The notes beneath the pieces are model-generated. The model was not told where the DNA came from, did no database searches, and saw only the letters and a program-made list of their open reading frames with translations. The translations under genes and the position numbers were made by a program. 64,000 bases of DNA from Erodium maritimum (Eukaryota; Streptophyta; Magnoliopsida; Geraniales; Geraniaceae). The stretch covers positions 72,371,020 to 72,435,019 of the forward strand of contig OY997588.1 in the NCBI GenBank assembly GCA_963921825.1, written 5' to 3'. The stretch's first letter is position 1. Every line of letters begins with the position of its first letter. This document shows, piece by piece, positions 12,299 to 52,573 of this stretch.

Positions 12299-13889
12299 TG
12301 TTGGGTCTCGAGGTAGGGTTGGAGATGAACCAACTCGCAGCGGAAAATCAATGAAAACCAAGAGACGATTAAACCATGAAACAACTAACAAAGAATGGAT
12401 TCACAAGAGAAAAATTCAGCACTATTTCTTACCAAAACAAGAACACCGGTTAACGAATGATTGGCTTGAGTCTCCAAGATGCCTACGTATCCACATGGGA
12501 ATCAAAGCCACGTAGTTCTTCTCTTTAAGGACTCAAGAACACAAAAAGATGACTTAAACATAACAAAACCCATACTTGTCCAACTAAAGGCATGGGACAA
12601 GTATGGTGTCAAGTAAGGTGTAAATAGGACAAAGTATGGCAAGACAAGATTGGGTTAGGTGGTGAATCACCAACACCTTAATCCTTGTCTTGCATACTTA
12701 GTACTAATTAATCAAGACTTGATTAATTAGTTCAATGGGCCTTGGTTGCATGGGCCTTTCATGGGCCTCTTGGAACATGGCCCGTGGCCATTTCCAACGA
12801 GGTCCCGTGATTCGCTCATCGCCTCCATGCCTTCCATACCGGAAATGTCCAACATTATCCGACGCGATCAATCCCAAGACTCCAAGCCTTGTCTCGATCC
12901 GTAAAGTCCTATTCACTTACGGGCACATGACCCAAAACCCAGTTTTGGTCATGTCCCGAGACAACTCCCTTTTGGCCATTCTCCATAAATGTGTCAATGA
13001 GTTTCATCCTCCGGTGTGACCCTTGGTTATGCATGTCAATAGATCAACGTAAAATATCATTTTACTTGATCCTATTTAAGTGGCAACTAACGAGACTTTA
13101 GTATTGCCTGACACTGCATAGCGAATCGACCCTGTCGATTCTAACCTTTCCGTCGTCCCTGTCATTATCCTTTTATCTCCGATATCCTGATTGAGATAAG
13201 GCATAGAGCTGTCATCCTTATTATTCTCAATCACCGTTCCTTGATATGTGAGATGACTGAAGATATGATACCCAGTATCATGTGCATGGCCATGCTATTC
13301 TTCCAGTCACTCTCGATCAAGCGGCCGAGAACCGATATCTTTCTCATACCTTAGTACGAGGGATAAATCCCTTAGCCGTCTTTCGTGTCACTCATGTAGC
13401 CCGTCCCCAAGCCAATCCTGGCCGTTATGGAAGCCATGTTACGGACAACGTTAGGCTCAGGTCAAACTGAGTTGTTGACTACATAGCGATCACAAAGACT
13501 CCTTGGTCTAAGGATACATCACAAGCTACAACACTGAATATGTTCATGACTTAATCTATGGCACATATTCAGGGCGGGTCGTCCAATATCATGTCCCATA
13601 TGATATCTATGATCAGACTCCGGAATCCCATTCCAATGACTAACAGAACGTAAGCCATAAAGAGCCATCTTTCATACTAGTCGCTTCTAGTGAAGCTTTG
13701 TTGACTAGGGACCCATCGAGTGTGATCTATCTCGATCTATGGTTCTATTCGCATGGTGGGCATAGATCAGAGCACACATCGATATATTACTCCAACACAT
13801 AAGTAATATAAAGCCGCTTTAATTTTATTGCTAACGATGATATGTACATTTGGACATTTAGGATTGAACTACGGGCACTAAGACTAACA
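12299..13889 (-). repeat. 3' LTR of copia B, 1591 bp
   Basis: Runs TGTTGGGTCTCG to AGACTAACA. It is about 97 bp shorter than the 1688-bp LTRs of C because of one deletion near 12550, inside the segment that in C follows CAAGAACACAAA. Confidence 0.92.
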
Positions 13890-15818
13890 ATCTCCCACTT
13901 TCCCTAGTTCCAATCTAAACTCCAATATGTCCCCATCGACTTTACATGTCTAACATGTTCAGGCAGTGACACTGCCTTAGTCAAATGGTTGGCTATGTTA
14001 TCATCTGTTGTAATATCGGTTATCTTCACTTCACCTCTGTTCAGTATTTATCTGATGAGGTGGATACGCCGCAGTACATGTTTGGATTTGTTATACGATC
14101 TAGGCTTTTAGCTTGCGCAATGGCCCTTGTGTTGTCGCAAGATGGATTCACCAGGCTGGATGGGTTTTTAATTACACCCAGCCCTGCCATGAATTTCCAA
14201 ATCCACATAGCCTCCTTAGCTGCCTCTGCAGCATCCATGTACTTGGCCTCTATCGTAGATTCGGCAATGATATCTTGCTTTACGCTCTCCCAGCTAAAGC
14301 TCTACCATTCAGCGTAAACACATATCCTGATTGACTTCTAAAGTCATCTGGATTTGTCTTGGAAAACTAGCGTCTACTCATCCTTCGACGACTAGTTCAA
14401 CATCATCTTTCCCCCGGGTTAGAATGATGTCTACTGGTACAACATAAGGCTTACGAGACGTCTGATCTCATACATGTCATGGCATATATGATCGATCATA
14501 CCCCCAGGCGCATAGGATTCTCATCATCCTTTTCAGCTCATCAGGTTAGGACACTAAGTCTTGCTGAGATGAATGTCATGACTAGTGGGTAAGAGTCCTT
14601 TCTTTGAATCGAGCATTAAGAACCTACTCAATGCCTTGTTCACATAGGTTCCCTGACTTAAATCCAAGACCCTCTTGGTGCGATCTCTACATATCTTAAT
14701 CCTTAAGATATAAGAAGCATCGCCTAAGTCCTTTATTGAAAAACACTTCCTCAACCAAGCTTTAGTCTCGTGTAAGGTTGGGATGTCGTTTTCAATGAGA
14801 ACCAGAAAGGTAATCTTGCTCCCACTAGCCTTCTTATAAACGCAAGATTCATCCTCGTTCTTGATTAAGCCAAATCCAATTACAGCTTCATCAAAACGAA
14901 AGATCCAACTCCGAGAAGTTCGTTTCAATCCATAAATGGATTTCAACAACTTATAAATCTTTCCTTTATTCTTCAGATCGTCAAAACCTTTGGGCCGAGA
15001 CATACAAACGTACTCAATCAAATTTCCATTTAGGAAAGCGGTTTTGACATCCACTTGCCATATCTCGTAATTATAATACGCAGTTATGTCAAGAAGAATT
15101 TGGATCGATTTTGACCATAGCCACTAGGGAGAAGGTTTCCTCATAGTCAATCCATTGGATCTGCCTATAACCTTTCACCACCAGTTGAGCTTTGTAGGTC
15201 AGAGGGTTGCCATCCATGTCCATCTTCACCTTGAAGATCCATTTGCATCCGATGGTCCTCACACCATTGATGGGATCAACCGGTTCCCAGACTCGGTTGT
15301 CCGACATGGATTGCATTTCCTCCCTCATGGCTCCCAGCCATAACTCGGAGTCGGGCCCATCCACGACTTCTTGAAAGGTGGCTGGATCATCGTGATCCAC
15401 CATGACTTCATTGTCACCTCCGGATACCATATATTGGAGGTGGAAGAATGATCCTTTCAAATCGCCTTGGACCTTCCGGAATTGTAACAAGAATTGCTTC
15501 TTACTCTACGACAATCTCTGGCTCCTTTCTACTGGGTTGCCAATTGGTTTAGACAGATCTGTACCATCCTGAATTTCTTCGAGATGCACAGTCCTCCCAA
15601 TGACGTCTTTGGAAACAAAACTCCTTTTCCATAAAGACCCTACCCCATGCGACGAACACCATGTTCTCACTGGGATTGTAGAAGTAGTATCCCCTTGTTG
15701 CTTTGGTATACCACACGAAGGTGCATATCTCAGATCTTGGTTCGAGCTTAGTCGAAACCAAATGTTTCACATAAGCCTCGCAACCACAAATCTTTAAGAA
15801 GGACAAAGCGGGCATCAT
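13890..15818 (-). pseudogene. RNase H, reverse transcriptase and integrase C-terminus of copia B
   Basis: Reading leftward on the minus strand: integrase C-terminal block 15549-15818 (LSFLKICGCEAYVKH, YNPSENMVFV), RT palm N-terminus 15089-15490 (MREEMQSMSDNRVWEPVD), RT C-terminal block 14554-15054 (MDVKTAFLNGN, KSIYGLKRTSRSW), then frameshifted RNase H to about 13905 (EAAKEAMWIWKF at 14041-14238). At about 14779-14812 the frame reads FLVLIENDIP, with the YVDD box missing. The inverted polypurine tract follows at 13890-13905. Confidence 0.85.
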
Positions 15819-15995
15819 CCCGTACCATTTAAAAATAGTATCCCTTCCACACCATTCGTCGAAGCCCGATTCACTATGAATGCGGTCGTCTCTAGAGCAT
15901 AATCCCAGAAAGAGATTGGGAGATCAGTCCAACTAATAATGGAACGGATCATTGTCTAACAATGTCCGATTTCTCCGTTTGGCTACACCTTTCAA

Positions 15996-16783
15996 CTACA
16001 GTGACCTAGGAGGAGTCCATTCCAAAAGGATCCCATTCTCTTTTAGATGATCTAATAACTCTGTGGTCAAGTATTTTCCACCTCGATCCAATCGAAGTGC
16101 CTTAATACCTTTGTCGAGCTGGTTTTCTACTATAGTCTTAAACTCTTTGAATTTATCAAAAGCTTCAGACTTATGTCTCACCGAATAGACATAACCATAT
16201 TTACTGTAATCATCAGTAAATGTGATAAAGTAGCTAAAACCCCTCCTGGCAAGTGAACTTATTGGTCTACACACATTCGAGTGTATCAGCCCCAATAATT
16301 CACCCGCCCTTTCATCGCGATCGATAAAGGGCACTTTAGTCATTTTGCCCATCAAACAAACCTTGCACCTATCGATCGAATGGAATTCGAATGAACCTGA
16401 AAGCCCGCACTTCTGAAGTGCTGATAGGCGCTTCTTGTTTATGCGACCCAAATGATAGTACCATAACAGAGTTAGGTTTAAATCGTTGGATTTAGACCTC
16501 TTGGTATTAACGGAATATATAGAACTTGAGGCATTGTTACCCATATCTAATATGTACAATCCTCCAACCATGTCAGTACTGGTATAAAACATATCATTGC
16601 ATAGAACATTGAAAACTCCATTTCCAATATTAACATTATATCCTTCCTTGTCAAACACGGATACAGATATAATATTCCTGCTAAAGTAGGTATGCAATAT
16701 ACATTATACAATACTAAGACAAGGCCTCTTGGCAAAGCAAGACTCATGGATCCTACAGCAGTTGCCACAACTCTGAGGTCCAT
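15996..16783 (-). pseudogene. Integrase remnant of copia B
   Basis: The open frame carries LLWYYHLGRINKKR and CKVCLMGK (zinc histidines changed, cysteines kept). The core has IHSNVCRP (Asn for the first catalytic Asp), FTDDYSKYG (kept) and DRGGKYL (Lys for the catalytic Glu). It stops right after TPPRSL, before the conserved C-terminal part. A 1-bp loss near 16685 breaks the frame relative to element C. Confidence 0.85.
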
Positions 16784-17412
16784 TTCGTGCTTTCCAAATC
16801 TCGCCTACTTTCAGCCACCATATATTAGTGCATGTGTGAGATTCAGTCATGGTATCTAATACCCATGAATCTTTGGAAGTAGAGAGATGTAGCTCTATAG
16901 AGTTAATACCGAATGAAGGCACGATCCCACCGCCCTTCCTTAGATCATCCAGGTTTCCTGATGAAGGCGCAGTCCTACTGCCCTTCTTCAGATCATCCAG
17001 GCTATTTGATGAAGGCGCAGTCCCACTGCCCTTCTTCAGATCAGCCGTGAACTTCCTGTAATCCCGGTTCCAATGACCAGGCTGTTGGCAGTAGAAGCAG
17101 ACATTCTCAGGTGTCTCATCTTTCCTGCCAAGTGCGCATGGGCCCAGCCCTTGCCACTTCCAATTCCCTTGTTGACCATCAGAATATCCTTGGATCCCAG
17201 ATCCCTGAGATATTCTTCTCAGCAGCTGATGACACTTCATGTAACTCTGATATGGTCTTAGAGACAGCCTTGTCAAGGACATATTCTTTGCGTTCAGACT
17301 TGAGGACTATCCTCAAAATTCTGTACCAGTCCAAATAGTTTGTCCCATTTAGCTTGACCCTGTCAAGAATGGTTTTTAATGACAAACTATTAATGTTCGC
17401 TGAATTTGCCAT
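16704..17412 (-). pseudogene. gag and protease start of copia B
   Basis: ATG at 17412 (MANSANINSLSLKTIL, KLNGTNYLDWYRILRI, then YVLDK) is the usual copia gag start. After about 45 residues it passes straight to the KTISELH/AEKNI segment that normally lies about 150 residues later, so the gag core is deleted. After a frame change near 17180 it continues as CFYCQQPGHWNRDYRKF (last Cys replaced by Tyr), three 16-residue linker repeats and WVLDTMTESHTC at the protease site, where the Asp is kept and the Gly lost. Confidence 0.85.
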
Positions 17413-18969
17413 TTGATCTACAACAGATAAAATTCAATCAGTAAACTGAATAAATTTTATGAAGATCAAGCTTAAACACCAACAATCGATTCTAAACCTT
17501 TAGAATCTGAAACCAAGATCCTTGATTCACTCGATTAAGCTGAACTAATGCTCACCACTTAATCGAGCTATGTAGGTAGGACTCCATCCAATCACATCCA
17601 ATGTGACTCTTGGCTAGGGTATGTACTTATGTACACGACTTACCCTATCTGTTACCCTAGCTCAACCTCAGGCCGAGAATCGTAGTCGGGTCCACCAATT
17701 TTCAACTATGGCTCGTCACTATGTAGGTGCTCCGCTAATGCGCACGACACCCACATATGTCGTCCAAACCTACTACCCCGCTTCCCCATGGATGCTCCGC
17801 TAATGCGCACGACAACCATAGGACGGGGAGGTAGTAAGGTGTTGATGATTGGGAGGTATCGGACATGACCCGCTTTTACTTGTCCAGTTGTGTTCAAAAC
17901 TTTGGCACATCCTAGATGCGATGAGCACATCAACTACATTCCAAATGCAATGATGCCTCAAATTACATCCAATGTAATTCTTCCTTTGAACCCGTCAACT
18001 ACATCCAATGCAATGACGGTTCTAAGGGTTCACACACAAGGATTAAAAGTCCAATTTTGTCTTTGCATGTGAGGTGATATGCTCGGTAAATAAAGTTAAG
18101 CATGCAATTCTAAAACACATAGAATTAATCATGCATAAACTAAACCAAGCATAAAGCGATAAATGTGCACATAATAGCCCCCTAAACTAACTCCCACTAG
18201 CTTCTTGAGCTCCACCGACTCCAAGCCGATGCCAACACCCGAAAAGCCACCAAATGACCTTTTCGCCCTTTCTTCGTCTTGAGTAAAATATTACAATTTA
18301 ATACACGACTCGCAGGTCGGGAATAAATAAATATTACAAACAAGTGGTTCGACGACCACACCTTGAAAGAATAATTACACGTTAACTCTAACGGCTCGCA
18401 GGCCGTGAAAAGCGATAAATAATTAAATTGAGCTCGGGGCTATTATGTACACCATGACAACATCACATCACACATCGTGTTATCAAACAAGCATGTTATC
18501 AAACATCATGTGATTTTCCGGTTTTAATTAATAGCCAAGTTTCGAAATTTTTTTGATGCTCGGTTTATCGAAACCGTTCAAAAATGAAACTTTTGAACAT
18601 TTGATCTTCGAGTTCATCATGAAGGTTCCAAACTCGTCATAACTAACAAAACGGTTTAGCCTTGGCATATCAACCATCCAATGGTCATGCTTGGCCTAGC
18701 TCCGTCCAACGGAGCCCCGTTCGGTCCCGGTTTCGGCTCCCCGAGAGTCCCGCTCCCGAGACCCGAAAAATCAAATTTTTTTCAAAATTTCCAGATTTGA
18801 AATAATTTTCAAAAATTCATTTTACATGCATTAAATCCATAAACAATAATTTAAAACATGTTATCAAACAATTTAGCAAAACAACATGCCAAAAACAAAA
18901 CTTTCAAGCAAAACCGAAACTTTGAACACCGTCTTGTGAATCCCGAAGGTAGCACGGCTCTGATACCAC
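17413..18969 (-). other. Long untranslated leader and primer site of copia B
   Basis: About 1.55 kb separates the gag ATG from the 5' LTR, long for a copia leader. The iMet primer site is CTCTGATACCA at 18958-18968 on the plus strand. The leader contains a duplicated CTCCGCTAATGCGCACGAC (near 17731 and 17791) and a perfect hairpin (18699-18715) also present in C and F. No coding frame is credible. Confidence 0.8.
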
Positions 18970-20658
18970 TGTTGGGTCTCGAGGTAGGGTTGGAGATGAA
19001 CCAACTCGCAGCGGAAAATCAATGAAAACCAAGAGACAATTAAAACCATGAAACAACTAACAAAGAATGGATTAACAAGAGAAAAATTCAGCACTAATTC
19101 TTACCAAAACAAGAACACCGGTTAACGAATGATTGGCTTGAGTCTCCAAGACGCCTACGTATCCACATGGGAATCAAAGCCACGTAGTTCTTCTCTTTGA
19201 GGACTCAAGAACACAAACATGGAGGTGGAAACTAGCCAAACCCGAAATGGCCATGGAAGAGGGAGAGAAAATGTGTTTCCTATTCTTGTCTTGTGTTTGT
19301 TATGTTGAAAAAAGATGACTTAAACATAACAAAACCCATACTTGTCCAACTAAAGGCATGGGACAAGTATGGTGTCAAGTAAGGTGTAAATAGGACAAAG
19401 TATGGCAAGACAAGATTGGGTTAGGCGGTGAATCACCAACACCTTAATCCTTGTCTTGCTTACTTAGTACTAATTAATCAAGACTTGATTAATTAGTTCA
19501 ATGGGCCTTGGTTGCATGGGCCTTTCATGGGCCTCTTGGAACATGGCCCATGGCCATTTCCAATGAGGTCCCGTGATTCGCTCATCGCCTCCATGCCTTC
19601 CATACCGGAAATGTCCAACATTATCCGACGCGATCAATCCCAAGACTCCAAGCCTTGTCTCGATCTGTGAAGTCCTATTCACTTACGGGCACATGACCCA
19701 AAACCCAGTTTTGGTCATGTCCCGAGACAACTCCCTTTTGGCCATTCTCCATAAATGTGTCAATGAGTTTCATCCTCAGGTGTGACCCTTAGGTTTATGC
19801 ATGTCAATAGATCAACGTAAAATCCCATTTTACTTGATCCTATTTAAGTGGCAACTAACGAGACTTTAGTATTGTCTGACACTACATAACGAATCGACCC
19901 TGTCGATTCTAACCTTTCCGTTGTCCCTGTCATTATCCTTTTATCTCCGATATCCTGATTGAGATAAGGCATAGAGCCGTCATCCTTATTATTCTCAATC
20001 ACCGTTCCTTGATATGTGAGATGACTGAAGATATGATACCCAGTATCATGTGCAGGGCCATGCTATTCTTCCAGTCACTCTCGATCAAGTGGCCTAGAAC
20101 CGATATCTTTCCCATACCGTAGTATGAGGGATAAATCCCTTAGCCGTCTTTCGTATCACTCATGCAGTCCGTCCCCAAGCCAATCCTGGCCGTTATGGAA
20201 GCCCTGTTACGGACAACGTTAGGCTCAGGAAAAACTCAGTTGTTTAGTGCATAGCGATCACAAAGACTCCTTGGTCTAAGGATACATGATAACCTATGAC
20301 AATGAATATGTTTATGACTTAATCTATGGCATATATTCATGTCGGGTCATCCAATATCATGTCCCACATGATATCTATGATCATACTTTGGAATCCATTC
20401 CAATGACTAACAGAACGTAAGCCATAAAGAGTCATCTTTCATACTAGTCGCTTCTAGTGAAGCATTGTTGACTAGGGACCCATCGAGTGTGATCTATCTC
20501 GATCTATGGTTCTATTCGCATGGTGGTCATAGATCAGAGCACGTATCGATATATTACACCAACACATAAGTAATATAAAGTTGCTTTAATTTTATTGCTA
20601 ACGATGATATATATATATCTGGACAGTTAGAATTGAACTACGGGCAGTAAGACTAACA
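18970..20658 (-). repeat. 5' LTR of copia B, 1689 bp
   Basis: TGTTGGGTCTCG to AGACTAACA. Its first half is close to the LTRs of C and D. Its last 500 bp (about 20090-20658) is more diverged, for example ATGTTTATGACTT in place of ATGTTCATGACTT, which suggests gene conversion or recombination. Confidence 0.92.
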
Positions 20659-25280: not shown

Positions 25281-25285
25281 CACAG

Positions 25286-26973
25286 TGTTGGGTCTCGAGG
25301 TAGGGTTGGAGATGAACCAACTCGCAGCGGAAAATCAATGAAAACCAAGAGACAATTAAAACCATGAAACAACTAACAAAGAATGGATTAACAAGAGAAA
25401 AATTCAGCACTAGTTCTTACCAAAACAAGAACACCGGTTAACGAATGATTGGCTTGAGTCTCCAAGATGCCTACGTATCCACATGGGAATCAAAGCCACG
25501 TAGTTCTTCTCTTTGAGGACTCAAGAACACAAACATGGAGGTGGAAACTAGCCAAACCCGAAATGGCCATGGAAGAGGGAGAGAAAATGTGTTTCCTATT
25601 CTTCTCTTGTGTTTGTTATGTTGAAAAAAGATGACTTAAACATAACAAAACCCATACTTGTCTAACTAAAGGCATGGGACAAGTATGGTGTCAAGTAAGG
25701 TGTAAATAGGACAAAGTATGGCAAGACAAGATTGGGTTAGGTGGTGAATCACCAACACCTTAATCCTTGTCTTGCTTACTTAGTACTAATTAATCAAGAC
25801 TTGATTAATTAGTTCCATGGGCCTTGGTTGCATGGGCCTTTCATGGGCCTCTTGGAACATGGCCCGTGACCATTTCCAACGAGGTCCCGTGATTCGCTCA
25901 TTGCCTCCATGCCTTCCATACCGGAAATGTCCAACATTATCCGACGCGATCAATCCCAAGACTCCAAGCCTTGTCTCGATCCGTAAAGTCCTATTCACTT
26001 ACGGGCACATGACCCAAAACCCAGTTTTGGTCATGTCCCGAGACAACTCCCTTTTGGCCATTCTCCATAAATGTGTCAATGAGTTTCATCCTCCGGTGTG
26101 ACCCTTAGGTTTATGCATGTTAATAGATCAACGTAAAATCCCATTTTACTTGATCCTATTTAAGTGGCAACTAACGAGACTTTAGTATTGCCTGACACTA
26201 CATAACGAATCGACCCTGTCGATTCTAACCTTTCCGTCGTCCCTGTCATTATCCTTTTATCTCCGATATCCTGATTGAGATAAGGCATAGAGCCGTCATC
26301 CTTATTATTCTCAATCACCGTTCCTTGATATGTGAGATGACTGAAGATATGATACCCAGTATCATGTGCATGGCCATGCTATTCTTCCAGTCACTCTCGA
26401 TCAAGTGGCCGAGAACCGATATCTTTCCCATACCTTAGTATGAGGGATAAATCCCTTAGCCGTCTTTCGTGTCACTCATGTAGCCCGTCCCCAAGCCAAT
26501 CCTGGCCGTTATGGAAGCCCTGTTACGGACAACGTTAGGCTCAGGTCAAACTCAGTTGTTGACTACATAGCGATCACAAAGACTCCATGGTCTAAGGATA
26601 CATGACAAGCTACAACACTGAATATGTTCATGACTTAATCTATGGCACATATTCAGGGCGGGTCGTCCAATATCATGTCCCACATGATATCTATGATCAG
26701 ACTCCGGAATCCCATTCCAATGACTAACAGAACGTAAGCCATAAAGAGCCATCTTTCATACTAGTCGCTTCTAGTGAAGCTTTGTTGACTAGGGACCCAT
26801 CGAGTGTGATCTATCTCGATCTATGGTTCTATTCGCATGGTGGGCATAGATCAGAGCACACATCGATATATTACTCCAACACATAAGTAATATAAAGCCG
26901 CTTTAATTTTATTGCTAACGATGATATATACATTTGGACATTTAGGATTGAACTACGGGCACTAAGACTAACA
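25286..26973 (-). repeat. 3' LTR of copia C, 1688 bp
   Basis: TGTTGGGTCTCG to AGACTAACA, next to the inverted polypurine tract ATCTCCCACTTGCCC. It contains a hairpin with 14-bp perfect arms, ACTAATTAATCAAG and its complement, around one base (25785-25813). Confidence 0.95.
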
Positions 26974-28906
26974 ATCTCCCACTTGCCCTAGTTCCAATCT
27001 AAACTCCAATATGTCCCCATCGACTTTACATGTCTAACATGTTCAGGCAGTGACACTGCCTTAGTCAAAGGGTTGGCTATGTTATCATCTGTTGCAATAT
27101 CGGTTATCTTCACTTCACCTCAGTTCAGTATTTATCTGATGAGGTGGATATGCCGCAGTACATGTTTGGATTTGTTATGCGATCTAGGCTTTTAGCTTGC
27201 GCAATGGCCCTTGTGTTGTCGCAAAATGGATTCACCGGACTGGATGGGTTTTTAATTACACCCAGCCCTGCCATGAATTTCCAAATCCACATAGCCTCCT
27301 TAGCTGCCTCTGCAGCATCCATGTACTTGGCCTCTGTCGTAGATTCGGCAATGGTATCTTGCTTTACGCTTTCCCAGCTAAAGCTCTGCCATTCAGCGTA
27401 AACACATATCCTGATTGACTTCTAAAGTCATCTGGATTTGTCTTGGAAAACTAGCGTCTACTAATCCTTCGACGACTAGTTAAACATCATCTTTCCCCCG
27501 GGTTAGAATGATGTCTACTGGTACAACATAAGGCTTACGAGACGTCTGGTCTCATACATGTCATGGCATATATGATCGATCCTGCCCCCAGGCGCATAGG
27601 ATTCTCATCATCCTTTTCAGCTCATCAGGTGTCTTAGGACACTGAGTCTTGCTGAGATGAATGCCATGACTAGTGGGTAAGAGTCCTTTCTTTGAATCGA
27701 GCATTAAGAACCTACTCAATGCCTTGTTCACATAGGTTCCCTGACTTAAATCCAAGACCCTCTTGGTGCGATCTCTACATATCTTAATCCTTAAGATATG
27801 AGAAGCGTCGCCTAAGTCCTTTATTGAAAAACACTTCCTCAACCAAGCTTTAGTCTCGTGCAAGGTTGGGATGTCGTTTTCAATGAGAACCAGAAAGGTA
27901 ATATTGCTCCCACTAGCCTTCTTATAAACGCAAGATTCATCCTCGTTCTTGATTAAGCCAAATCCAATTACAGCTTCATCAAAACGAAGGATCCAACTCC
28001 GAGAAGTTCGTTTCAATCCATAAATGGATTTCAACAACTTATAAATCTTTCCTTTATTCTTCGGATCGTCAAAACCTTTGGGCCGAGACATACAAACGTA
28101 CTCAGTCAAATTTCCATTTAGGAAAGCGGTTTTGACATCCACTTGCCATATCTCGTAATTATGATACGCAGTTATGTCAAGAAGAATTTGGATCGATTTT
28201 GACCATAGCCACTAAGGAGAAGGTTTCCTCATAGTCAATCCATTGGATCTGCCTATAACCTTTCGCCACCAGTTGAGCTTTGTAGGTCAGAGGGTTGCCG
28301 TCCATGTCCATCTTCACCTTGAAGATCCATTTACATCCTATGGTCCTCACACCATTGATGGGATCAACCGGTTCCCAGACTCGGTTGTCCGACATGGATT
28401 GCATTTCCTCCCTCATGGCTCCCAGCCATAACTCGGAGTTGGGCCCATCCACGACTTCCTGAAAGGTGGCTGGATCATCGTGATCCACCATGACTTCATT
28501 GTCACCTCCGGATACCATATCTTGGAGGTGGAAGATTGATCCTTTCAAATCGCCTTGGACCTTCCGGAATTGTAACAGGAATTGGTTCTTACTCTACGAC
28601 AATCTCTGGCTCCTTTCTACTGGGTTGCCAATTGGTTTAGACAGATCTGTACCATCCTGAATTTCTTCGAGATGCACAGTCCTCCCAATGACGTCTTTGG
28701 AAACAAAACTTCTTTTCCATAAAGACCCCACCCCAAGCGATGAACACCATGTTCTCACTGGGATTGTAGAAATAGTATCCCCTTGTTGCTTTGGGATACC
28801 ACACGAAGGTGCATATCTCAGATCTTGGTTCGAGCTTAGTCGAAACCAAATGTTTCACATAAACCTCGCAACCACAAATCTTTAGGAAGGACAAAGCGGG
28901 CATCAT
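26974..28906 (-). pseudogene. RNase H, reverse transcriptase and integrase C-terminus of copia C
   Basis: Integrase C-terminal block 28637-28906, RT N-terminal block 28177-28548 and RT C-terminal block 27561-28142 are open but in separate frames. At 27861-27895 the RT frame reads FLVLIENDIPTLHETK: the YVDD box and its hydrophobic flank are missing, with frame kept. RNase H is broken by stops and lacks a stretch after SRYQSNP. EAAKEAMWIWKF and CDNTRAIAQAKS remain (27125-27322). No active polymerase can come from it. Confidence 0.88.
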
Positions 28907-29084
28907 CCCGTACCATTTTTAAAATGGTGTCCCTTCTACACCATTCGTCGAAGCCCGATTCACTATGAATGCGGTCGTCTCTAGAGCAAAACCTCTAAAA
29001 GAGATTGGGAGATCAGTCCAACTAATCATGGAACAAACCATTGTCTAACAATGTCCGATTTCTCCGTTTGGCTACACCTTTCAA

Positions 29085-29873
29085 CTACAGTGACCTAGGA
29101 GGAGTCCATTCCAAAAGGATCCCATTCTCTTTTAGGTGATCTAATAACTCTGTGGTCAAGTATTTTCCACCTCGATCCAATCGAAGTGCCTTAATACCTT
29201 TGTCGAGCTGGTTTTCTACTATAGTCTTAAACTCTTTGAATTTATCAAAAGCTTCAGACTTATGTCTCACCGAATAGACATAACCATATTTACTGTAATC
29301 ATCAGTAAATGTGATAAAGTAGCTAAAACCCCTCATGGCAAGTGAACTTATTGGTCTACACACATTCGAGTGTATCAGCCCCAATAATTCACCCGCCCTT
29401 TCATCGCGATCGATAAAGGGCACTTTAGTCATTTTGCCCATCAAACAAACCTTGCACCTATCGATCGAATGGAATTCGAATGAACCTGAAAGCCGGCACT
29501 TGTGAAGTGCTGATAGGCGCTTCTTGTTTATGCGACCCAAATGACAGTACCATAACAGAGTTAGGTTTAAATCGTTGGATTTAGACCTCTTGGTATTAAC
29601 GGAATATATAGAACTTGAGGCATTGTTACCCATATCTAATATGTACAATCCTCCAACCATGTCAGTACTGGTATAAAACATATCATTGCATAGAACATTG
29701 AAAACTCCATTTCCAATATTAACATTATATCCTTCCTTGTCAAACACGGATACAGATATAATATTCCTACTAAAAGTAGGTATGCAATATACATTATACA
29801 ATACTAAGACAAGGCCTCTTGGCAAAGCAAGACTCATGGATCCTACAGCAGTTGCCACAACTCTGAGGTCCAT
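29085..29873 (-). pseudogene. Integrase remnant of copia C, 262 codons open
   Basis: The longest open frame of the family. It starts in protease C-terminal sequence (MDLRVVATAVGSMSLALP) and passes through the integrase zinc region LLWYCHLGRINKKR (both His changed) and CKVCLMGK. The core has IHSNVCRP (Asn for Asp), FTDDYSKYG and DRGGKYLTT (Lys for Glu), and it stops after TPPRSL. Two of three catalytic acidic residues and both zinc histidines are replaced. An open but catalytically dead frame in a young copy shows the lesions predate insertion. Confidence 0.88.
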
Positions 29874-30502
29874 TTCGTGCTTTCCAAATCTCTCCTACTT
29901 TCAGCCACCATATATTAGTGCATGTGTGAGATTCAGTCATGGTATCTAATACCCATGAATCTTTGGAAGTAGAGAGATGTAGCTCTATAGAGTTAATACC
30001 GAATGAAGGCACGATCCCACCGCCCTTCCTTAGATCATCCAGGTTTCCTGATGAAGGCGCAGTCCTACTGCCCTTCTTCAGATCATCCAGGCTATTTGAT
30101 GAAGGCGCAGTCCCACTGCCCTTCTTCAGATCAGCCGTGAACTTCCTGTAATCCCTGTTCCAATGACCAGGCTGTTGGCAGTAGAAGCAGACATTCTCAG
30201 GTGTCTCATCTTTCCTGCCAAGTGCGCATGGGCCCAGCCCTTGCCACTTCCAATTCCCTTGTTGACCATCAGAATATCCTTGGATCCCAGATCCCTGAGA
30301 TATTCTTCTCAGCAGCTGATGACACTTCATGTAACTCTGATATGGTCTTAGAGACAGCCTTGTCAAGGACATATTCTTTGCGTTCAGACTTGAGGACTAT
30401 CCTCAAAATTCTGTACCAGTCCAAATAGTTTGTCCCATTTAGCTTGACCCTGTCAAGAATGGTTTTTAATGACAAACTATTAATGTTCGCTGAATTTGCC
30501 AT
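29794..30502 (-). pseudogene. gag and protease start of copia C
   Basis: Near-identical to the matching part of B. ATG at 30502 (MANSANINSLSLKTIL), then a shortened gag with the core deleted. The second frame carries CFYCQQPGHWNRDYRKF (Tyr at the last ligand), three 16-residue repeats (about 29995-30140) and WVLDTMTESHTC. The frame change to the integrase part near 29870 is shared with A and B. Confidence 0.88.
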
Positions 30503-32056
30503 TTGATCTACAACAGATAAAATTCAATCAGTAAACTGAATAAATTTTATGAAGATCAAGCTTAAACACCAACAATCAATTCTAAACCTTTAGAATCTGA
30601 AACCAAGATCCTTGATTCACTCGATTAAGCTGAACTAATGCTCACCACTTAATCGAGCTATGTAGGTAGGACTCCATCCAATCACATCCAATGTGACTCT
30701 TGGCTAGGGTATGTACTTATGTACACGACTTACCCTATCTGTTACCCTAGCTCAACCTCAGGCCGAGAATCGTAGTCGGGTCCACCAATTTTCAACTATG
30801 GCTCGTCAATATGTAGGTGCTCCGCTAATGCGCACGACACCCACATATGTCGTCCAAACCTACTACCCCGCTTCCCCATGGATGCTCCGCTAATGCGCAC
30901 GACAACCATAGGACGGGGAGGTAGTAAGGTGTTGATGATTGGGAGGTATCGGACATGACCCGATTTTACTTGTCCAGTTGTGTTCAAAACTTTGGCACAT
31001 CCTAGATGCGATGAGCACATCAACTACATTCCAATGCAATGATGCCTCAAATTACATCCAATGTAATTCTTCCTTTGAACCCGTCAACTACATCCAATGC
31101 AATGACGGTTCTAAGGGTTCACACACAAGGATTAAAATTCCAATTTTATCTTTGCATGTGAGGTGATATGCTCGGTAAATAAAGTTAAGCATGCAATTCT
31201 AAAACACATAGAATTAATCATGCATAAACTAAACCAAGCATAAAGCGATAAATGTGCACATAATAGCCCCCTAAACTAACTCCCACTAGCTTCTTGAGCT
31301 CCACGGACTCCAAGCCGATGCCAACACCCGAAAAGCCACCAAATGACCTTTTCGCCCTTTCTTCGTCTTGAGTAAAATATTACAATTTAATACACGACTC
31401 GCAGGTCGGGAATAAATAAATATTACAAACAAGTGGTTCGACGACCACACCTTGAAAGAATAATTACACGTTAACTCTAACGGCTCGCAGGCCGTGAAAA
31501 GCGATAAATAATTAAATCGAGCTCGGGGCTATTATGTACACCATGCCAACATCACATCACACATCGTGTTATCAAACAAGCATGTTATCAAACATCATGT
31601 GATTTTCCGGTTTTAATTAATAGCCAAGTTTCGAAAAATTTTGATGCTCGGTTTATCGAAACCGTTCAAAAATGAAACTTTTGAACATTTGATCTTCGAG
31701 TTCGTCATGACGGTTCCAAACTCGTCATACTAACAAAACGGTTTAACCTTGGCATATCAACCATCCAATGGTCATGCTTGGCCTAGCTCCGTCCAACGGA
31801 GCCCCGTTCGGTCCCGGTTTCGGCTCCCCGAGAGTCCCGCTCCCGAGACCCGAAAAATCAAAAAAATTTCAAAATTTCCAGATTTGAAATAATTTTCAAA
31901 AATTCATTATACATGCATTAAATCCATAAACAAGAATTTAAAACATGTTATCAAACAATTTAGCAAAACAACATGCCAAAAACGAAACTTTCAAGCAAAA
32001 CCGAAACTTTGAACACCGTCTTGTGAATCCCAAAGGTAGCAAGGCTCTGATACCAC
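30503..32056 (-). other. Leader and primer site of copia C
   Basis: A 1.55-kb untranslated leader with the iMet primer site CTCTGATACCA at 32045-32055 (plus strand). The leader hairpin GCTCCGTCCAACGGAGC is at 31786-31802. No plausible coding frame. Confidence 0.85.
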
Positions 32057-33744
32057 TGTTGGGTCTCGAGGTAGGGTTGGAGATGAACCAACTCGCAGCG
32101 GAAAATCAATGAAAACCAAGAGACAATTAAAACCATGAAACAACTAACAAAGAATGGATTAACAAGAGAAAAATTCAGCACTAGTTCTTACCAAAACAAG
32201 AACACCGGTTAACGAATGATTGGCTTGAGTCTCCAAGACGCCTACGTATCCACATGGGAATCAAAGCCACGTAGTTCTTCTCTTTGAGGACTCAAGAACA
32301 CAAACATGGAGGTGGAAACTAGCCAAACCCGAAATGGCCATGGAAGAGGGAGAGAAAATGTGTTTCCTATTCTTGTCTTGTGTTTGTTATGTTGAAAAAA
32401 GATGACTTAAACATAACAAAACCCATACTTGTCTAACTAAAGGCATGGGACAAGTATGGTGTCAAGTAAGGTGTAAATAGGACAAAGTATGGCAAGACAA
32501 GATTGGGTTAGGTGGTGAATCACCAACACCTTAATCCTTGTCTTGCTTACTTAGTACTAATTAATCAAGACTTGATTAATTAGTTCCATGGGCCTTGGTT
32601 GCATGGGCCTTTCATGGGCCTCTTGGAACATGGCCCGTGACCATTTCCAACGAGGTCCCGTGATTCGCTCATTGCCTCCATGCCTTCCATACCGGAAATG
32701 TCCAACATTATCCGACGCGATCAATCCCAAGACTCCAAGCCTTGTCTCGATCCGTAAAGTCCTATTCACTTACGGGCACATGACCCAAAACCCAGTTTTG
32801 GTCATGTCCCGAGACAACTCCCTTTTGGCCATTCTCCATAAATGTGTCAATGAGTTTCATCCTCCGGTGTGACCCTTAGGTTTATGCATGTTAATAGATC
32901 AACGTAAAATCCCATTTTACTTGATCCTATTTAAGTGGCAACTAACGAGACTTTAGTATTGCCTGACACTACATAACGAATCGACCCTGTCGATTCTAAC
33001 CTTTCCGTCGTCCCTGTCATTATCCTTTTATCTCCGATATCCTGATTGAGATAAGGCATAGAGCCGTCATCCTTATTATTCTCAATCACCGTTCCTTGAT
33101 ATGTGAGATGACTGAAGATATGATACCCAGTATCATGTGCATGGCCATGCTATTCTTCCAGTCACTCTCGATCAAGTGGCCGAGAACCGATATCTTTCCC
33201 ATACCTTAGTATGAGGGATAAATCCCTTAGCCGTCTTTCGTGTCACTCATGTAGCCCGTCCCCAAGCCAATCCTGGCCGTTATGGAAGCCCTGTTACGGA
33301 CAACGTTAGGCTCAGGTCAAACTCAGTTGTTGACTACATAGCGATCACAAAGACTCCATGGTCTAAGGATACATGACAAGCTACAACACTGAATATGTTC
33401 ATGACTTAATCTATGGCACATATTCAGGGCGGGTCGTCCAATATCATGTCCCACATGATATCTATGATCAGACTCCGGAATCCCATTCCAATGACTAACA
33501 GAACGTAAGCCATAAAGAGCCATCTTTCATACTAGTCGCTTCTAGTGAAGCTTTGTTGACTAGGGACCCATCGAGTGTGATCTATCTCGATCTATGGTTC
33601 TATTCGCATGGTGGGCATAGATCAGAGCACACATCGATATATTACTCCAACACATAAGTAATATAAAGCCGCTTTAATTTTATTGCTAACGATGATATAT
33701 ACATTTGGACATTTAGGATTGAACTACGGGCACTAAGACTAACA
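32057..33744 (-). repeat. 5' LTR of copia C, 1688 bp
   Basis: Same length as the 3' LTR and almost identical to it. The target duplication CACAG follows at 33745-33749, after which the chromovirus leader resumes. Confidence 0.95.
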
Positions 33745-33749
33745 CACAG

Positions 33750-43832: not shown

Positions 43833-46800
43833 TGTTAGTTTTAGTGCTCGTAGTTCAATCATAAATGTCCAAATGTATATATCATCATTAGCAATAAGAT
43901 TAAAGCGGCTTTATATTACTTATGTGTTGGAGTAATATATCGATGTGTGTTCTGATCTATGTCCACCATGCAAATAGAACCATAGATCGAGATGGATCAC
44001 ACTCGATGGGTCCCTAGTCAACAAAGCTTCACTAGAAGCGACTAGTATGAAAGATGCCTCTCCATGGCTTACGTTATGTTGGTCATTGGAATGGGATTCC
44101 GGAGTCTGATCATAGATATCATGTGGGACATGATATTGTTAGTCTTAGTGCCCGTAGTTCAATCCTAAATGTCCAAATGTATATATCATCGTTAGCAATA
44201 AAATTAAAGCGGTTTTATATTACTTATGTGTTGGAGTAATATATCGATGTGTGCTCTGATCTATGCCCACCATGCGAATAGAACCATAGATCGAGATAGA
44301 TCACACTCGATGGGTCCCTAGTCAACAAAGCTTCACTAGAAGCGACTAGTATGAAAGATGGCTCTTTATGGCTTACGTTCTGTTAGTCATTGGAATGGGA
44401 TTCCGGAGTCTGATCATAGATATCATGTGGGACATGATATTGGACGACCCGCCCTGAATATGTGCCATAGATTAAGTCATGAACATATTCAGTGTTGTAG
44501 CTTGTCATGTATCCTTAGACCAAGGAGTCTTTGTGATCGCTATGTAGTCAACAACTGAGTTTGACCTGAGCCTAACGTTGTCCGTAACAGGGCTTCCATA
44601 ACGGCCAGGATTTGCTTGGGGATGGGCTACATGAGTGACACGAAAGACGGCTAAGGGATTTATCCCTCTTACTAAGGTATGGGAAAGATATCGGTTCTCG
44701 GCCGCTTGATCGAGAGTGACTGGAAGAATAGCATGGCCATGCACATGATACTGGGTATCATATCTTCAGTCATCTCACATATCAAGGAACGGTGATTGAG
44801 AATAATAAGGATGACGGCTCTATGCCTTATCTCAATCAGGATATCGGAGATAAAAGGATAATGACAGGGACGACGGAAAGGTTAGAATCGACAGGGTCGA
44901 TTCGTTATGTAGTGTCAGGCAATACTAAAGTCTCGTTAGTTGCCACTTAAATATGATCAAGTAAAATGGTATTTTACGTTGATCTATTGACATGCATAAA
45001 CCTAAGGGTCACACCGGAGGATGAAACTCATTGACACATTTATGGAGAATGGCCAAAAGGGATTGTCTCGGGACATGACCAAAACTGGGTTTTGGGTCAT
45101 GTGCCCGTTAGGACTTTACGGATCGAGACAAGGCTTGGAGTCTTGGGATTGATCGCGTCGGATAATGTTGGACATTTCCGGTATGGAAGGTTTGGAGGCG
45201 ATGAGCGAATCACGGGACCTCGTTGGAAATGGCCACGGGCCATGTTCCAAGAGGCCCATGAAAGGCCCATGCAACCAAGGCCCATGGAACTAATTAGTCA
45301 AGTCTTGATTAATTAGTACTAAGTAAGCAAGACAAGGATTAAGGTGTTGGTGATTCACCACCTAACCCAATCTTGTCTTGCCATACTTTGTCCTATTTAC
45401 ACCTTACTTGACACCATACTTGTCCCATGCCTTTAGTTGGACAAGTATGGGTTTTGTTATGTTTAAGTCATCTTTTTTCAACATAACAAAGACAAGACAA
45501 GAATAGGAAATACAACTTCTCTCTCCCTTCCCTTGCAATTTCGGGTTTGGCAAGCTCCCACCTCCATTTTTGTGTTCTTGAGTCCTCAAAGAGAAGAACT
45601 ACGTGACTTTGATTCCCATGTGGATACGTAGGCATCTTGGAGACTCAAGCCAATCATTCGTTACCCGGTGTTCTTGTTTTGGTAAGAACTAGTGCTGAAT
45701 TTTTCTCTTGTGAATCCATTCTTTGTTAGTTGTTTCATGGTTTTAATCGTCTCTTGGTTTTCCTTGATTTTCCGCTGCGAGTTGGTTCATCTCCAACCCT
45801 ACCTCGAGACCCAACAGATATTGGATGACCCAACATGAATATGTGCCATAGATCAAGTCATGAGCATATTCAGTGTCGTAGCTTGTCATGTATCCTTAGA
45901 CCAAGGAGTCTTTGTGATCGCTATGTAGTCAACAACTGAGTTTGACCTGAGCCTAACGTTGTCCGTAACAGGGCTTCCATAACGGGCAGGATTGGCTTGG
46001 GGACGGGCTACATGAGTGACACGAAATACGGCTAAGGGATTTATCCCTCATACTGAGGTATGGGAAAGATATCGGTTCTCGGCCGCTTGATCGAGAGTGA
46101 CTGAAAGAATAGCATGGCCATGCACATGATACTGGGTATCATATCTTCAGTCATCTCACATATCAAGGAACAGTGATTGAGAATAATAAGGATGACGGCT
46201 CTATGCCTTATCTCAATCAACATATCGGAGATAAAAGGATAATGACAGGGATGACAGAACGGTAAGAATCGACAGGGTCGATTCGTTTTGCAGTGTCAGG
46301 AAATACTAAAGTCTCGTTAGTCGCCACTTAAATAGGATCAAGTAAAATGGGATTTTACGTTGATCTATTGACATGCATAAACTTAGGGTCACACCGGAGG
46401 ATGAAACTCATTGACACATTTATGGAGAATGGCCAAAAGGGAGTTGTCTCGGGAAATGACCAAAACTGGGTTTTGGGTCATGTGTCCGTAAGTGAATAGG
46501 ACTTTACGGATCGATACGAGGCTTGGAGTATTGGGATTGATCGCGTCGGATAATGTTGGACATTTCTGGTATGGAAGGCTTGGAGGCGATGAGCGAATCA
46601 CGGGACCTCGTTGGAAATGGCCACGGGCCATGTTCCAAGAGGCCCATGAAAGGCCCATGCAACCAAGGCCCATGGAACTAATTAATCAAGTCTTGATTAA
46701 TTAGTACTAAGTAAGAAACACAAGGATTAAGGTGTTGGTGATTCACCACCTAACCCAATCTTGCCTTGCCATACTTTGTCCTATTTACACCTTACTTGTC

Positions 46801-48722: not shown

Positions 48723-48885
48723 GAATGCTGTTTTTTTTCTTGTATTTCTTTTTTCTGTTTGCTTTCTGCTCTTTGGAGCTGGTAATGGTCTGTGGTAAGA
48801 ATCTTTTTGGATCCTCTCCTGCTTTGTTCTATATTCTTATAGAACATTTGCTTTAATAAAAAAATTTAGCCTATCAAAAAAAAAG
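48723..48885 (+). other. 3' UTR and tail of RRM retroposon 1
   Basis: T-rich sequence, then CTTTAATAAAAAAATTTAGC and a poly(A)-like run. Reverse-complement similarity to 59300-59345 marks the conserved 3' end. Confidence 0.7.
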
Positions 48886-50464
48886 AAAAAAATTCAGCAC
48901 TAGTTCTTACCAAAACAAGAACACCGGTTAACGAATGATTGGCTTGAGTCTCCAAGACGCCTACGTATCCACATGGGAATCAAAGCCACGTAGTTCTTCT
49001 CTTTGAGGACTCAAGAACACAAACATGGAGGTGGAAACTAGCCAAACCCGAAATGGCCATGGAAGAGGGAGAGAAAATGTGTTTCTTATTCTTGTCTTGT
49101 GTTTGTTATGTTGAAAAAAGATGACTTAAACATAACAAAACCCATACTTGTCCAACTAAAGGCATGGGACAAGTATGGTGTCAAGTAAGGTGTAAATAGG
49201 ACAAAGTATGGCAAGACAAGATTGGGTTAGGCGGTGAATCACCAACACCTTAATCCTTGTCTTGCTTACTTAGTACTAATTAATCAAGACTTGATTAATT
49301 AGTTCAATGGGCCTTGGTTGCATGGGCCTTTCATGGGCCTCTTGGAACATGGCCCATGGCCATTTCCAATGAGGTCCCGTGATTCGCTCATCGCCTCCAT
49401 GCCTTCCATACCGGAAATGTCCAACATTATCCGACGCGATCAATCCCAAGACTCCAAGCCTTGTCTCGATCTGTAAAGTCCTATTCACTTACGGGCACAT
49501 GAACCAAAACCCAGTTTTGGTCATGTCCCGAGACAACTCCCTTTTGGCCATTCTCCATAAATGTGTCAATGAGTTTCATCCTCCGGTGCGACCCTTAGGT
49601 TTATGCATGTCAATAGATCAACGTAAAATATCATTTTACTTGATCGTATTTAAGTGGAAACTAACGAGACTTTAGTATTGCCTGACACTGCATAACGAAT
49701 CGACCCTGTCGATTCTAACCTTTCTGTCGTCCCTGTCATTATCCTTTTATCTCCGATATCCTGATTGAGATAAGGCATAGAGCCGTCATCCTTATTATTC
49801 TCAATCACTGTTCCTCGATATGTGAGATGACTGAATATATGATACCCAGTATCATGTGCATGGCCATACTATTCTTTCAGTCACTCTCGATCAAGCGGCC
49901 GAGAAACGATATCTTTCTCATACCTTAGTATGAGGGATAAATCCCTTAGCCGTCTTTCATGTCACTCATGTAGCCCGTCCCCAAGCCAATCTTGGCCGTT
50001 ATGGAAGCCCTGTTACGGACAACGTTAGGCTCAGGTCAAACTAAGTTGTTGACTACATAGCGATCATAAAGACTCCTTGGTCTAAGGATACATGACAAGC
50101 TACGACACTGAATATGTTCGTGACTTAATCTATGGCACATATTCAGGGCGGGTCGTCCAATATCATGTCTCACATGATATCTATGATCAGACTCCAGAAT
50201 CTCATTCCAATGACTAACAGAACGTAAGCCATAAAAAGCCATCTTTCATACTAGTCGCTTCTAGTGAAGCTTTGTTGACTAGGGACCCTATCGAGTGTGA
50301 TCTATCTCGATCTATGGTTCTATTTGCATTGTGGGCATAGATCAGAGCACACATCGATATATCACTCCAACACATAAGTAATATAAAGCCGCTTTAATTT
50401 TATTGCTAACGGTGATATATACATTTGGACATTTAGGATTGAACTACGGGCACTAAGACTAACA
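48886..50464 (-). repeat. 3' LTR of copia D, truncated
   Basis: Matches C's LTR from its position 117 to its end AGACTAACA at 50464. It shares CCCATGGCCATTTCCAATGA with the 5' LTR of B, so it belongs to the same sublineage. Confidence 0.9.
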
Positions 50465-52396
50465 ATCTCCCACTTGCCCTAGTTCCAATCTAAACTCCAA
50501 TATGTCCCCGTCGACTTTAAATGTCTAACATGTTTAGGCAGCGACAGTGCCTTAGTCAAAGGGTTGGCTATGTTATCATCCGTTGCAATATAAGTTATCT
50601 TCACTTCACCTCGGTTTAATATTTCTCTGATGAGGTGGATACGCTATAGTACATGTTTGGATTTGTTATGCGATCTGGGCTTTTAGCTTGCGCAATGGCC
50701 CTTGTGTTGTCGCAAAATGGATTCACCTGGCTGGATGGGTTTTTAATTACACCCAACCCTGACGTGAATTTCCAAATCCACATAGCCTCTTTAGCTGCTT
50801 CTATAGCATCCATGTACTTGGCCTCTATTGTAGATTCAGCGACGGTATCTTGCTTTACGCTTTCCCAGCTAAAGCTCCGTCATTCAGCGTAAACACATAT
50901 CCTGACCGACTTCTAATGTCATCTGGATTTGTCTTGGAAAACTAGCGTCTACTCATCCTTCGACGACTAGTTCAACATCATCTTTCCCCTGGATTAGACT
51001 GATGTCTACTGGTACAACATAAGGCTTACGAGACGTGCGGTCTCGTACATGTCATGTCATATATGATCAATCATGCCCTCAGGCGCATGGGATTCGCATC
51101 ATCCTTTTCAGCTCAACAAGTGTCTGAAGACACTTAGTCTTGTTGAGATGAATGCCATGACTAGTGGGTAAGAGTCCTTTCTTTGAATCTAGCATTGAGA
51201 ACGTACTCAATGCCTTGTTCACATAGGTTCCATGACTTAAAACCAAGACCCTCTTGGTGCGATCTCTACATATCTTAATCCCTAAGATGTAAGCAGCATC
51301 GCTTAAGTCCTTTATTGAGAAACACTTCCTCAGCTAAGCTTTAGTCTCGTGCAAGGTTGGGATGTCATTTTCAATGAGAACCAGAATGGTAATCTTGCTC
51401 CCACTAGCCTTCTATAAACGCAAGATTCATCCTCGTTCTTGATTAAGCCAAATCCAATTACAGCTTCATCAAAACGAAGGTTCCAACTCCGAGAAGTTCG
51501 TTTCAATCCATAAATGGATTTCAACAACTTATAAATCTTTCCCTTATTCTTCGGATCGTCAAAACCTTTGGGCCGAGACACACAAATGTACTCAGTCAAA
51601 TTTCCGTTTAGGAAAGCGGTTTGACATCCACTTTCCATATCTCGTAATTTTGATACGCAGTTATGTCAAGAAGAATTTGGATCGATTTAGACCATAGCCA
51701 CTAGGGAGAAGGTTTCCTAATAGTCAATCCATTGGATTTGCCTATAACCTTTCGCCAACAGTTGAGCTTTGTAGGTCAGAGGGTTATCGTCCATGTCCAT
51801 CTTCACCTTGAAGATTCATTTGCATCCGATGGTCCTCACACCATTGTTGGGATCAACCGGTTCCCAGACTCGGTTGTCCGACATGGATTGCATTTCCTCC
51901 CTCATGGCTCCCAGCCATAACTCGGAGTCGGGCCCATCCACGACTTCCTGGAAGGTTGTTGGATCATTGTGATCCACCATGACTTCATTGTCACCTCCAG
52001 ATACCATATCTTGGAGGTGGAAGATTGATCCTTTCAAATCGCCTTGGACCTTCCGAAACTGTAACAAGAATTGGTTCTTACTCTACGACAATCTCTGGCT
52101 CCATTCTACTGGGTTGTCAATTGGTTTAGACAGATCTGTACCATCCTGAATTTCTTCGAGATGCACAGTCCTCCCAATGACGTCTTTGGAAACAAAACTC
52201 ATTTTTCCATAAAGACCCCACCCCAAGCGACGAACACCATGTTCTCACTGGGATTGTAGAAGTAGTATCCCCTTGTTGCTTTGGGATACCACACGAAGGT
52301 GCATATCTCAGATCCTGGTTCGAGCTTAGTCGAAACCAAATGTTTCACATAAGCCTCGCAACCACAAATCTTTAGGAAAGACAAAGCGGGTATCAT
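50465..52396 (-). pseudogene. RNase H, reverse transcriptase and integrase C-terminus of copia D
   Basis: Integrase C-terminal block 52199-52396, RT N-terminal block 51816-52067 and an RT middle block 51330-51638 that is frameshifted near 51410 (one base lost in the KKAS region). At about 51361-51395 the shared YVDD deletion is present (LIENDIP equivalent). RNase H remnants read EAAKEAMWIWKF and CDNTRAIAQAKSP (50616-50813). Confidence 0.82.
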
Positions 52397-52573
52397 CCCG
52401 TACCATTTTAAAATGCTGTCCCTTCCACACCCTTCGTCGAAGCCCGATTCACTATGAATGCGGTCGTCTCTAGAGTATAACCCCTGAAAGAGATTGGGAG
52501 ATCAGTCCAACTAATCATGGAACGGACCATTGTTTAACAATGTCCGATTTTTACGTTTGGCTACACATTTCAA

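What the first reader, a model, noticed from the sequence alone, without database searches (positions are those of the whole stretch)
25286..33744. A catalytically dead copia family that is still being mobilised
Element C has a perfect CACAG target duplication and two 1688-bp LTRs that differ, by eye, at about two sites. Yet its polyprotein lacks the RT YVDD box, has Asn and Lys at two integrase catalytic positions, has lost both integrase zinc histidines and the last gag zinc ligand, and has a shortened gag. The same lesions occur in A, B and D wherever covered, so they were inherited from a defective master, not acquired after insertion. Recent insertion must have used RT and integrase from another element. 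Few plant non-autonomous families keep most of a full-length, dead coding region, rather than losing it as LARDs and TRIMs do.
Basis: partly seen in the sequence, partly recalled or inferred. Interest (0 to 1): 0.88.

Follow-up and report, generated by a model that had tools for sequence, protein, structure and literature searches.

The report
Young copy of a dead retrotransposon
A plant jumping-gene family whose protein-coding part was broken long ago has still put a fresh copy into the genome, probably with enzymes borrowed from a working relative; this is a good new example of something already known in wheat and grapevine.

Summary
Element C (25286-33744, minus sense) is a complete Ty1/copia-type LTR retrotransposon: 1688-bp LTRs with 2 mismatches, a perfect CACAG target duplication, primer site and polypurine tract. 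Its gag, protease, integrase and RT parts are broken: short gag, a Cys lost from the zinc knuckle, protease DTG now DTM, both integrase zinc histidines and the first Asp and the Glu lost, 7 codons with the RT YVDD box deleted, several frameshifts and stops. These lesions recur at or near the same place in A, B and D wherever covered, except that D keeps one zinc histidine. A more distant relative, F, shares the two gag lesions. So the lesions were inherited, and C inserted long after the line died; RT, integrase and probably Gag must have come from elsewhere. The donor was not found: the host genome could not be searched. The claim of rarity fails: wheat RLC_Angela has non-autonomous copia subfamilies with a full-size, degenerate coding region, and grapevine has four copia families with interrupted ORFs and near-identical LTRs. 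New member of a known kind. One loose end: the gag-integrase part diverges more slowly than the RT-RNase H part in all six comparisons of A-D.

The parts
25281..25285 (.). Target site duplication CACAG, low side of C
33745..33749 (.). Target site duplication CACAG, high side of C
32057..33744 (-). C, 5' LTR (1688 bp)
   Evidence: 2 of 1688 sites differ from the other LTR
25286..26973 (-). C, 3' LTR (1688 bp)
32044..32055 (-). C, primer binding site TGGTATCAGAGC (fit to the 3' end of initiator Met tRNA is recalled), one base inside the 5' LTR
   Evidence: sequence; F has it with its last base changed
26974..26984 (-). C, polypurine tract AAGTGGGAGAT, next to the 3' LTR; the same 11 bases in A, B and D
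30148..30502 (-). C, shortened gag: ATG at 30502, zinc knuckle with last Cys changed to Tyr (codon 30150-30148); the two parts lie in different frames
   Evidence: Retrotran_gag_3 and zf-CCHC matches below the curated cut-off
29890..29946 (-). C, protease: DTG reads DTM (codon for G 29940-29938), then frameshifts near 29910 and 29890
29042..29894 (-). C, integrase: zinc His to Tyr (29549) and to Arg (29534), Asp to Asn (29366), Glu to Lys (29069), stop at 29087, frameshift at 29042
   Evidence: (rve, gag_pre-integrs)
27493..28593 (-). C, reverse transcriptase remnant: frameshift near 28200, 7 codons with the YVDD box missing at 27887, frameshift near 27602, stop at 27537
   Evidence: (RVT_2)
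12299..20658 (-). B, nearly complete relative, mosaic, no target duplication
48880..55935 (-). D, one LTR cut at its outer end, internal part with the lesions and a 1.1-kb insert, match ends at 55935
1..4512 (+). A, part of an element cut by the window edge, same lesions where covered
55963..58844 (+). F, more distant relative cut at 58844, shares the short gag and the zinc-knuckle Cys to Tyr
44137..45816 (+). E1, solo LTR with GATAT duplication, inserted in another LTR of the family (43833-47203)

Best explanation
C is a recent insertion of a non-autonomous Ty1/copia subfamily. An ancestor lost its coding capacity (gag capsid part, protease glycine, integrase Asp and Glu and a zinc ligand, RT YVDD box) but kept promoter LTRs, primer site, polypurine tract and LTR ends. 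Its RNA is packaged and reverse-transcribed, and the cDNA integrated, by Gag, RT and integrase of another copia element, which copies the dead coding region passively. Shown: lesions shared between copies, near-identical LTRs, clean target duplication, cis sites present. Inferred: the helper, packaging in trans, and that Gag too came from outside.
For: C's LTRs differ at 2 of 1688 sites and it has a perfect 5-bp duplication. Shared by all four of A-D: zinc-knuckle Cys to Tyr, protease Gly lost, second zinc His to Arg, Asp to Asn, Glu to Lys, the stop at reference codon 281, the frameshifts at reference codons 25 and 296 and near codons 231-238, the stop at codon 253, and the 7-codon YVDD gap. 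F shares the two gag lesions that it covers, at 7-11% divergence from C. The protease Gly codon is Arg in A and D but Met in B and C, an ordered second hit inside the dead line. Against a mutation spectrum from non-coding columns, coding changes are near neutral (synonymous share 0.342 against 0.245 expected in B, p 0.19; D 0.343/0.256, p 0.046; A 0.301/0.222, p 0.054). Relatives elsewhere keep the residues: P0002, 60% identical, both zinc His and the Asp; P0121, 65% identical, YVDD. The 11-base polypurine tract is unchanged in A-D.
Against: No intact partner was seen: the genome search did not complete. D keeps the first zinc His. Simple counting gives a synonymous excess (D p 0.001, A 0.015, B 0.031); with the spectrum it shrinks, and by domain two of 16 tests in the true frame stay below 0.05 (D before RT 0.006, A RT 0.019) against three in the shifted control frames, so weak coding constraint in part of the history is not excluded. 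Only C is shown to be young.
Confidence: 0.86

Rival explanations
1. C is old and its two LTRs were made alike by gene conversion.
For: Exchange between copies does occur here: divergence along B, D, A, F and E1 against C is overdispersed (variance/mean 1.77-5.46), and B and C differ by 0.6% in gag-INT but 2.8% in RT-RH.
Against: The CACAG duplication is perfect, and the LTRs match over all 1688 bp with two scattered mismatches and no mosaic break. One LTR would have to be converted end to end.
Confidence: 0.06
2. Each copy died on its own or on arrival from an intact master, and the lesions only look shared.
For: One lesion is not universal (first zinc His kept in D) and copies carry private stops and frameshifts. 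Asn at the first Asp occurs in 5 of the 120 listed relatives.
Against: Same deletion ends, stops and frameshifts in four copies; the 7-codon gap is in none of the 120 listed RT relatives. F shares the gag lesions.
Confidence: 0.03
3. The copies spread by segmental duplication, not by transposition.
For: B lacks a target duplication, and the copies are clustered in 64 kb.
Against: C and E1 have perfect, different duplications (CACAG, GATAT), and the flanks of C and B differ. E1 sits as a solo LTR inside another LTR.
Confidence: 0.02
4. The dead coding region does something at protein level, so the family is semi-autonomous.
For: The integrase frame of C is open for 269 codons. Protease Asp, integrase second Asp and first RT Asp remain in C. 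The piece before RT has simple nonsynonymous/synonymous ratios of 0.21 (B), 0.21 (D) and 0.43 (A), and in D p 0.006 against the spectrum.
Against: Protease Gly, integrase Asp and Glu, zinc ligands and YVDD are lost. Gag start and zinc knuckle are in different frames. Integrase ratios are 0.55-0.92, none significant against the spectrum (p 0.30-0.84). Shifted control frames give about as many low p values.
Confidence: 0.03

Closest known systems
Non-autonomous RLC_Angela subfamilies of wheat (PMC9744471)
   Same: Copia; full-size elements with highly degenerate coding regions full of frameshifts and stops, amplified over long times by autonomous partners
   Different: There whole populations and matched autonomous subfamilies are described; here one window, no partner found, and specific catalytic lesions listed
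Grapevine Gans, Gentil, Huben, Wintz (PMC2576258)
   Same: Copia families with interrupted ORFs, canonical copies with 99.3-100% LTR identity; the authors suggest trans complementation as one possibility
   Different: Whether their lesions are shared between copies was not seen in the passages read
Non-autonomous Athila families (PMC2410132)
   Same: Whole families without pol, inserting up to recently, by inference with enzymes of others
   Different: Not copia (Gypsy group: recalled); pol absent outright, gag and env under purifying selection
BARE2 of barley and Tos17 of rice (PMC9744471 section 3.2; PMC3977881 abstract)
   Same: Elements lacking a working gag that still move
   Different: BARE2's other genes are reported intact, and Tos17 is reported to lack gag; here gag, protease, integrase and RT are all broken
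LARDs and TRIMs (recalled)
   Same: Non-autonomous LTR elements moved in trans
   Different: They have lost the coding region; C keeps much of it as a pseudogene

Membership tests
Ty1/copia superfamily | Domain order gag, protease, integrase, RT | tested here: met
   in element sense integrase (29042-29894) precedes RT (27493-28593); RVT_2, gag_pre-integrs and SH3_retrovirus match
Ty1/copia superfamily | LTRs with TG..CA ends, tRNA primer site, polypurine tract, 5-bp target duplication | tested here: met
   the tRNA fit is recalled, not computed
Non-autonomous copia with degenerate coding region (RLC_Angela type) | Full-size element with broken coding region shared between copies | tested here: met
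   four of four copies, where covered
Non-autonomous copia with degenerate coding region (RLC_Angela type) | Insertion later than the lesions | tested here: met
   LTR divergence 0.0012 against 3.0-6.6% divergence of gag-INT and RT-RH between C and D or A, which bear the same lesions
Non-autonomous copia with degenerate coding region (RLC_Angela type) | Autonomous partner with matching LTR and cis sites | not tested
   host genome search did not complete (11 tries); no protein of 80% or more identity over most of a piece among the 240 listed
LARD | Large internal region without coding sequence | tested here: not met
   recognisable integrase, SH3 and RT domains remain
TRIM | Short element, short LTRs | tested here: not met
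   8459 bp, LTRs 1688 bp

The most novel reading that the evidence does not exclude
The 5' (gag to integrase) part of the dead coding region is kept because its RNA, not its protein, is needed, for example for packaging or dimerisation by the helper's Gag; that would explain why this family keeps a long pseudogene instead of shrinking to a LARD. In all six pairs of A-D this part diverges at 0.2-0.65 times the rate of RT-RNase H, also outside CG and CHG sites (5 of 6 pairs p < 0.05, pairs not independent), and the integrase frame shows no significant synonymous excess. Against it: counted by transversions alone the C-A pair goes the other way (25/1017 against 47/2088), exchange between copies is evident, and folding gave no support.
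Probability: 0.1. Interest if true: 0.6.

Novelty: new member of a known kind. Interest (0 to 1): 0.3.

Why it matters
It is a clear natural case for trans-mobilisation: gag, protease, integrase and RT are all broken, some lesions can be ordered, and a very young copy exists. If the partner is found, one can ask which cis sequences suffice and why the dead coding region is retained. It does not change the view of LTR retrotransposon biology.

Tried and rejected
Intact members or partner: viral contigs with the integrase piece gave no relative; exact patterns gave nothing in viral contigs and genome contigs; one LTR against plasmids and the integrase piece against E. coli genomes gave nothing. 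These collections are not plant genomes, so the misses mean little. A third protein search with the zinc-knuckle/protease piece scored none of 409 candidates. Protein searches skip full-length polyproteins, because candidate lengths are tied to the piece.

Protein-level selection: simple counting suggested constraint; with the mutation spectrum of non-coding columns most of it fades. Shifted frames as control are noisy too: B with frame shift 1 gave p 0.008. By domain two of 16 true-frame tests and three of the shifted-frame tests fall below 0.05.

RNA structure in the slow 5' part: the gag start folds with z -3.0 and the leader with z -3.6, but an RT piece taken as control folds with z -4.7, so folding gives no support.

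TARE1 of tomato (PMC3701649, abstract and passages) looked like a precedent by its title, but its authors call it autonomous. Rfam found nothing at gathering thresholds. One search also shows a +1 shift at reference codon 361 of P0002 in all four copies; P0002 itself seems shifted there, so I did not count it. RNase H was not scored.
Full report
What is there. Element C occupies 25286-33744 on the minus strand. Its LTRs (32057-33744 and 25286-26973) differ at 2 of 1688 sites, CACAG flanks it on both sides, and a 12-nt primer site (TGGTATCAGAGC) and a polypurine tract (AAGTGGGAGAT) lie where they should. The DNA on its two sides shares a stretch 89% alike (22386-22521 and 33768-33904), so it probably sits in an older LTR element (inference). 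Around it lie relatives: B (12299-20658, internal part 98% identical), D (48880-55935, internal part 94-95%), A (1-4512, internal part 93-96%), F (55963-58844, internal part 84-88%), a solo LTR E1 with a GATAT duplication inside another LTR of the family, and smaller pieces.

Is the coding region dead? Gag, protease, integrase and RT are broken; RNase H was not scored. Pfam still recognises integrase, SH3 and RT pieces. Aligned with frameshifts allowed to relatives from other sources (P0001, P0002, P0121), C shows: zinc-knuckle last Cys to Tyr; protease DTG to DTM; frameshifts in the protease-integrase region; zinc His to Tyr and to Arg; first Asp to Asn (a position also matched to the Asp of Ty1 integrase in 7z0h); stop at reference codon 281; Glu to Lys; frameshift at 296; frameshift at the start of the RT core; 7 codons with YVDD missing; frameshift and stop in the RT end. 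Still present are the protease Asp, the integrase zinc Cys pair and second Asp, and the first RT Asp. Among the best 120 of 515 integrase relatives the two zinc His are kept in 118 and 114 and the Asp in 115. Among the best 120 of 610 RT relatives 108 have [YF][VMLIA]DD; none of the other 12 has this 7-codon gap, P0229 has a larger one. The 119 residues before the zinc knuckle in P0011 find nothing significant in the window (best E 5.7), while the knuckle is found in C, B, D, F and A.

Are the lesions inherited? Yes, with one exception. In one search the lesions named above recur at or near the same place in B, D and A wherever covered, except that D has His at the first zinc position. The aligner places the protease-region shift of A differently (one +1 shift in place of two -1 shifts, the same net frame), and the RT-end shift varies between codons 231 and 238, with an extra private shift in B. 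The protease Gly is Arg in A and D and Met in B and C, so the line took a further hit after it was dead. F reaches only gag and the first protease codons and has both gag lesions. Distances: C-D 3.0% and 6.0%, C-A 4.3% and 6.6% (gag-INT and RT-RH), C-F 7.4-11.3%. C's own LTRs differ by 0.12%. At 1.3e-8 changes per site and year (a rice rate, recalled; the host is unknown) that is about 46,000 years for C (Poisson range about 5,000-165,000) against about two million years for the C-A split and three to five million for C-F (my arithmetic). The ratio, some 35- to 95-fold, does not depend on the rate.

How it works. Shown: a dead line, a later insertion with the marks of reverse transcription and integration, and cis sites in place. 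Inferred: Gag, RT and integrase from another copia element. Coding changes among copies are near neutral once the mutation spectrum is allowed for (B p 0.19, D 0.046, A 0.054), though simple counting gave a synonymous excess (D p 0.001, A 0.015, B 0.031). By domain, D before RT (p 0.006) and A RT (p 0.019) stand out among 16 tests in the true frame, and three tests in shifted control frames are also below 0.05. I read this as little or no protein constraint, not as proof of none.

Complications. B is not a clean insertion: LTR distance 0.042, no target duplication, and near-identity with C in gag-INT (8 of 1409) but not in RT-RH (59 of 2095). Divergence along B, D, A, F and E1 is more uneven than chance. 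Template switching or conversion therefore probably happened. Beyond that, gag-INT is slower than RT-RH in all six pairs of A-D (0.2-0.65 times), also outside CG and CHG sites, where 5 of 6 pairs have p < 0.05. The pairs share history and are not independent, and by transversions alone C-A goes the other way. Recombination, uneven mutation or an RNA role remain open; folding did not help.

Known or new. In wheat only about half of RLC_Angela copies have coding capacity; the others have highly degenerate coding regions, are similar in size, and co-evolved with autonomous partners (PMC9744471, abstract and sections 2.2, 2.6 and 3.2 read). In grapevine the canonical copies of four copia families have interrupted ORFs with 99.3-100% LTR identity, and trans complementation is offered as one possibility (PMC2576258, passages). 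Athila has whole families without pol (PMC2410132, abstract and two sections), and Tos17 is reported to lack gag (PMC3977881, abstract). So this is a new member of a known kind. That this very family is undescribed I cannot say: the host is unknown, and four literature searches were for the kind, not the family.

Limits. The host genome could not be searched, so the partner and the count of young copies are untested. Statements on sharing rest on four copies, two of them partial, plus a piece of F.

Noticed in passing
54042-55147: A 1.1-kb insert in D with perfect terminal inverted repeats of at least 25 bp, an AT-rich body with inverted parts and what looks like a 9-bp target duplication (TAAATTTTA); resembles a Mutator-type non-autonomous DNA transposon (type recalled).
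   Followed up: partly
43833-47203: A solo LTR (44137-45816, GATAT duplication) lies inside another LTR of the same family.
   Followed up: yes
12299-20658: B is a mosaic: LTRs 4.2% apart, no target duplication, on its low side next to a piece of another family member; gag-INT nearly identical to C, RT-RH not.
   Followed up: partly
26995-30504 in C (element positions 3241-6750): The gag-INT part diverges at 0.2-0.65 times the rate of the RT-RH part in all six comparisons of A-D, also outside CG and CHG sites; unexplained.
   Followed up: partly
6012-6600 and 9742-10289: The same pair of 55-bp and 57-bp minisatellite arrays occurs twice, 3.7 kb apart, perhaps in the two LTRs of another element.
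   Followed up: no
30003-30133, 16913-17043, 53493-53624, 39-170: A 48-bp tandem repeat (2.7-2.8 units) between zinc knuckle and protease in A-D; F seems to have fewer units.
   Followed up: no
6861-6939: ARAGORN reports a tRNA-Ala (AGC) gene in this repeat-rich window.
   Followed up: no
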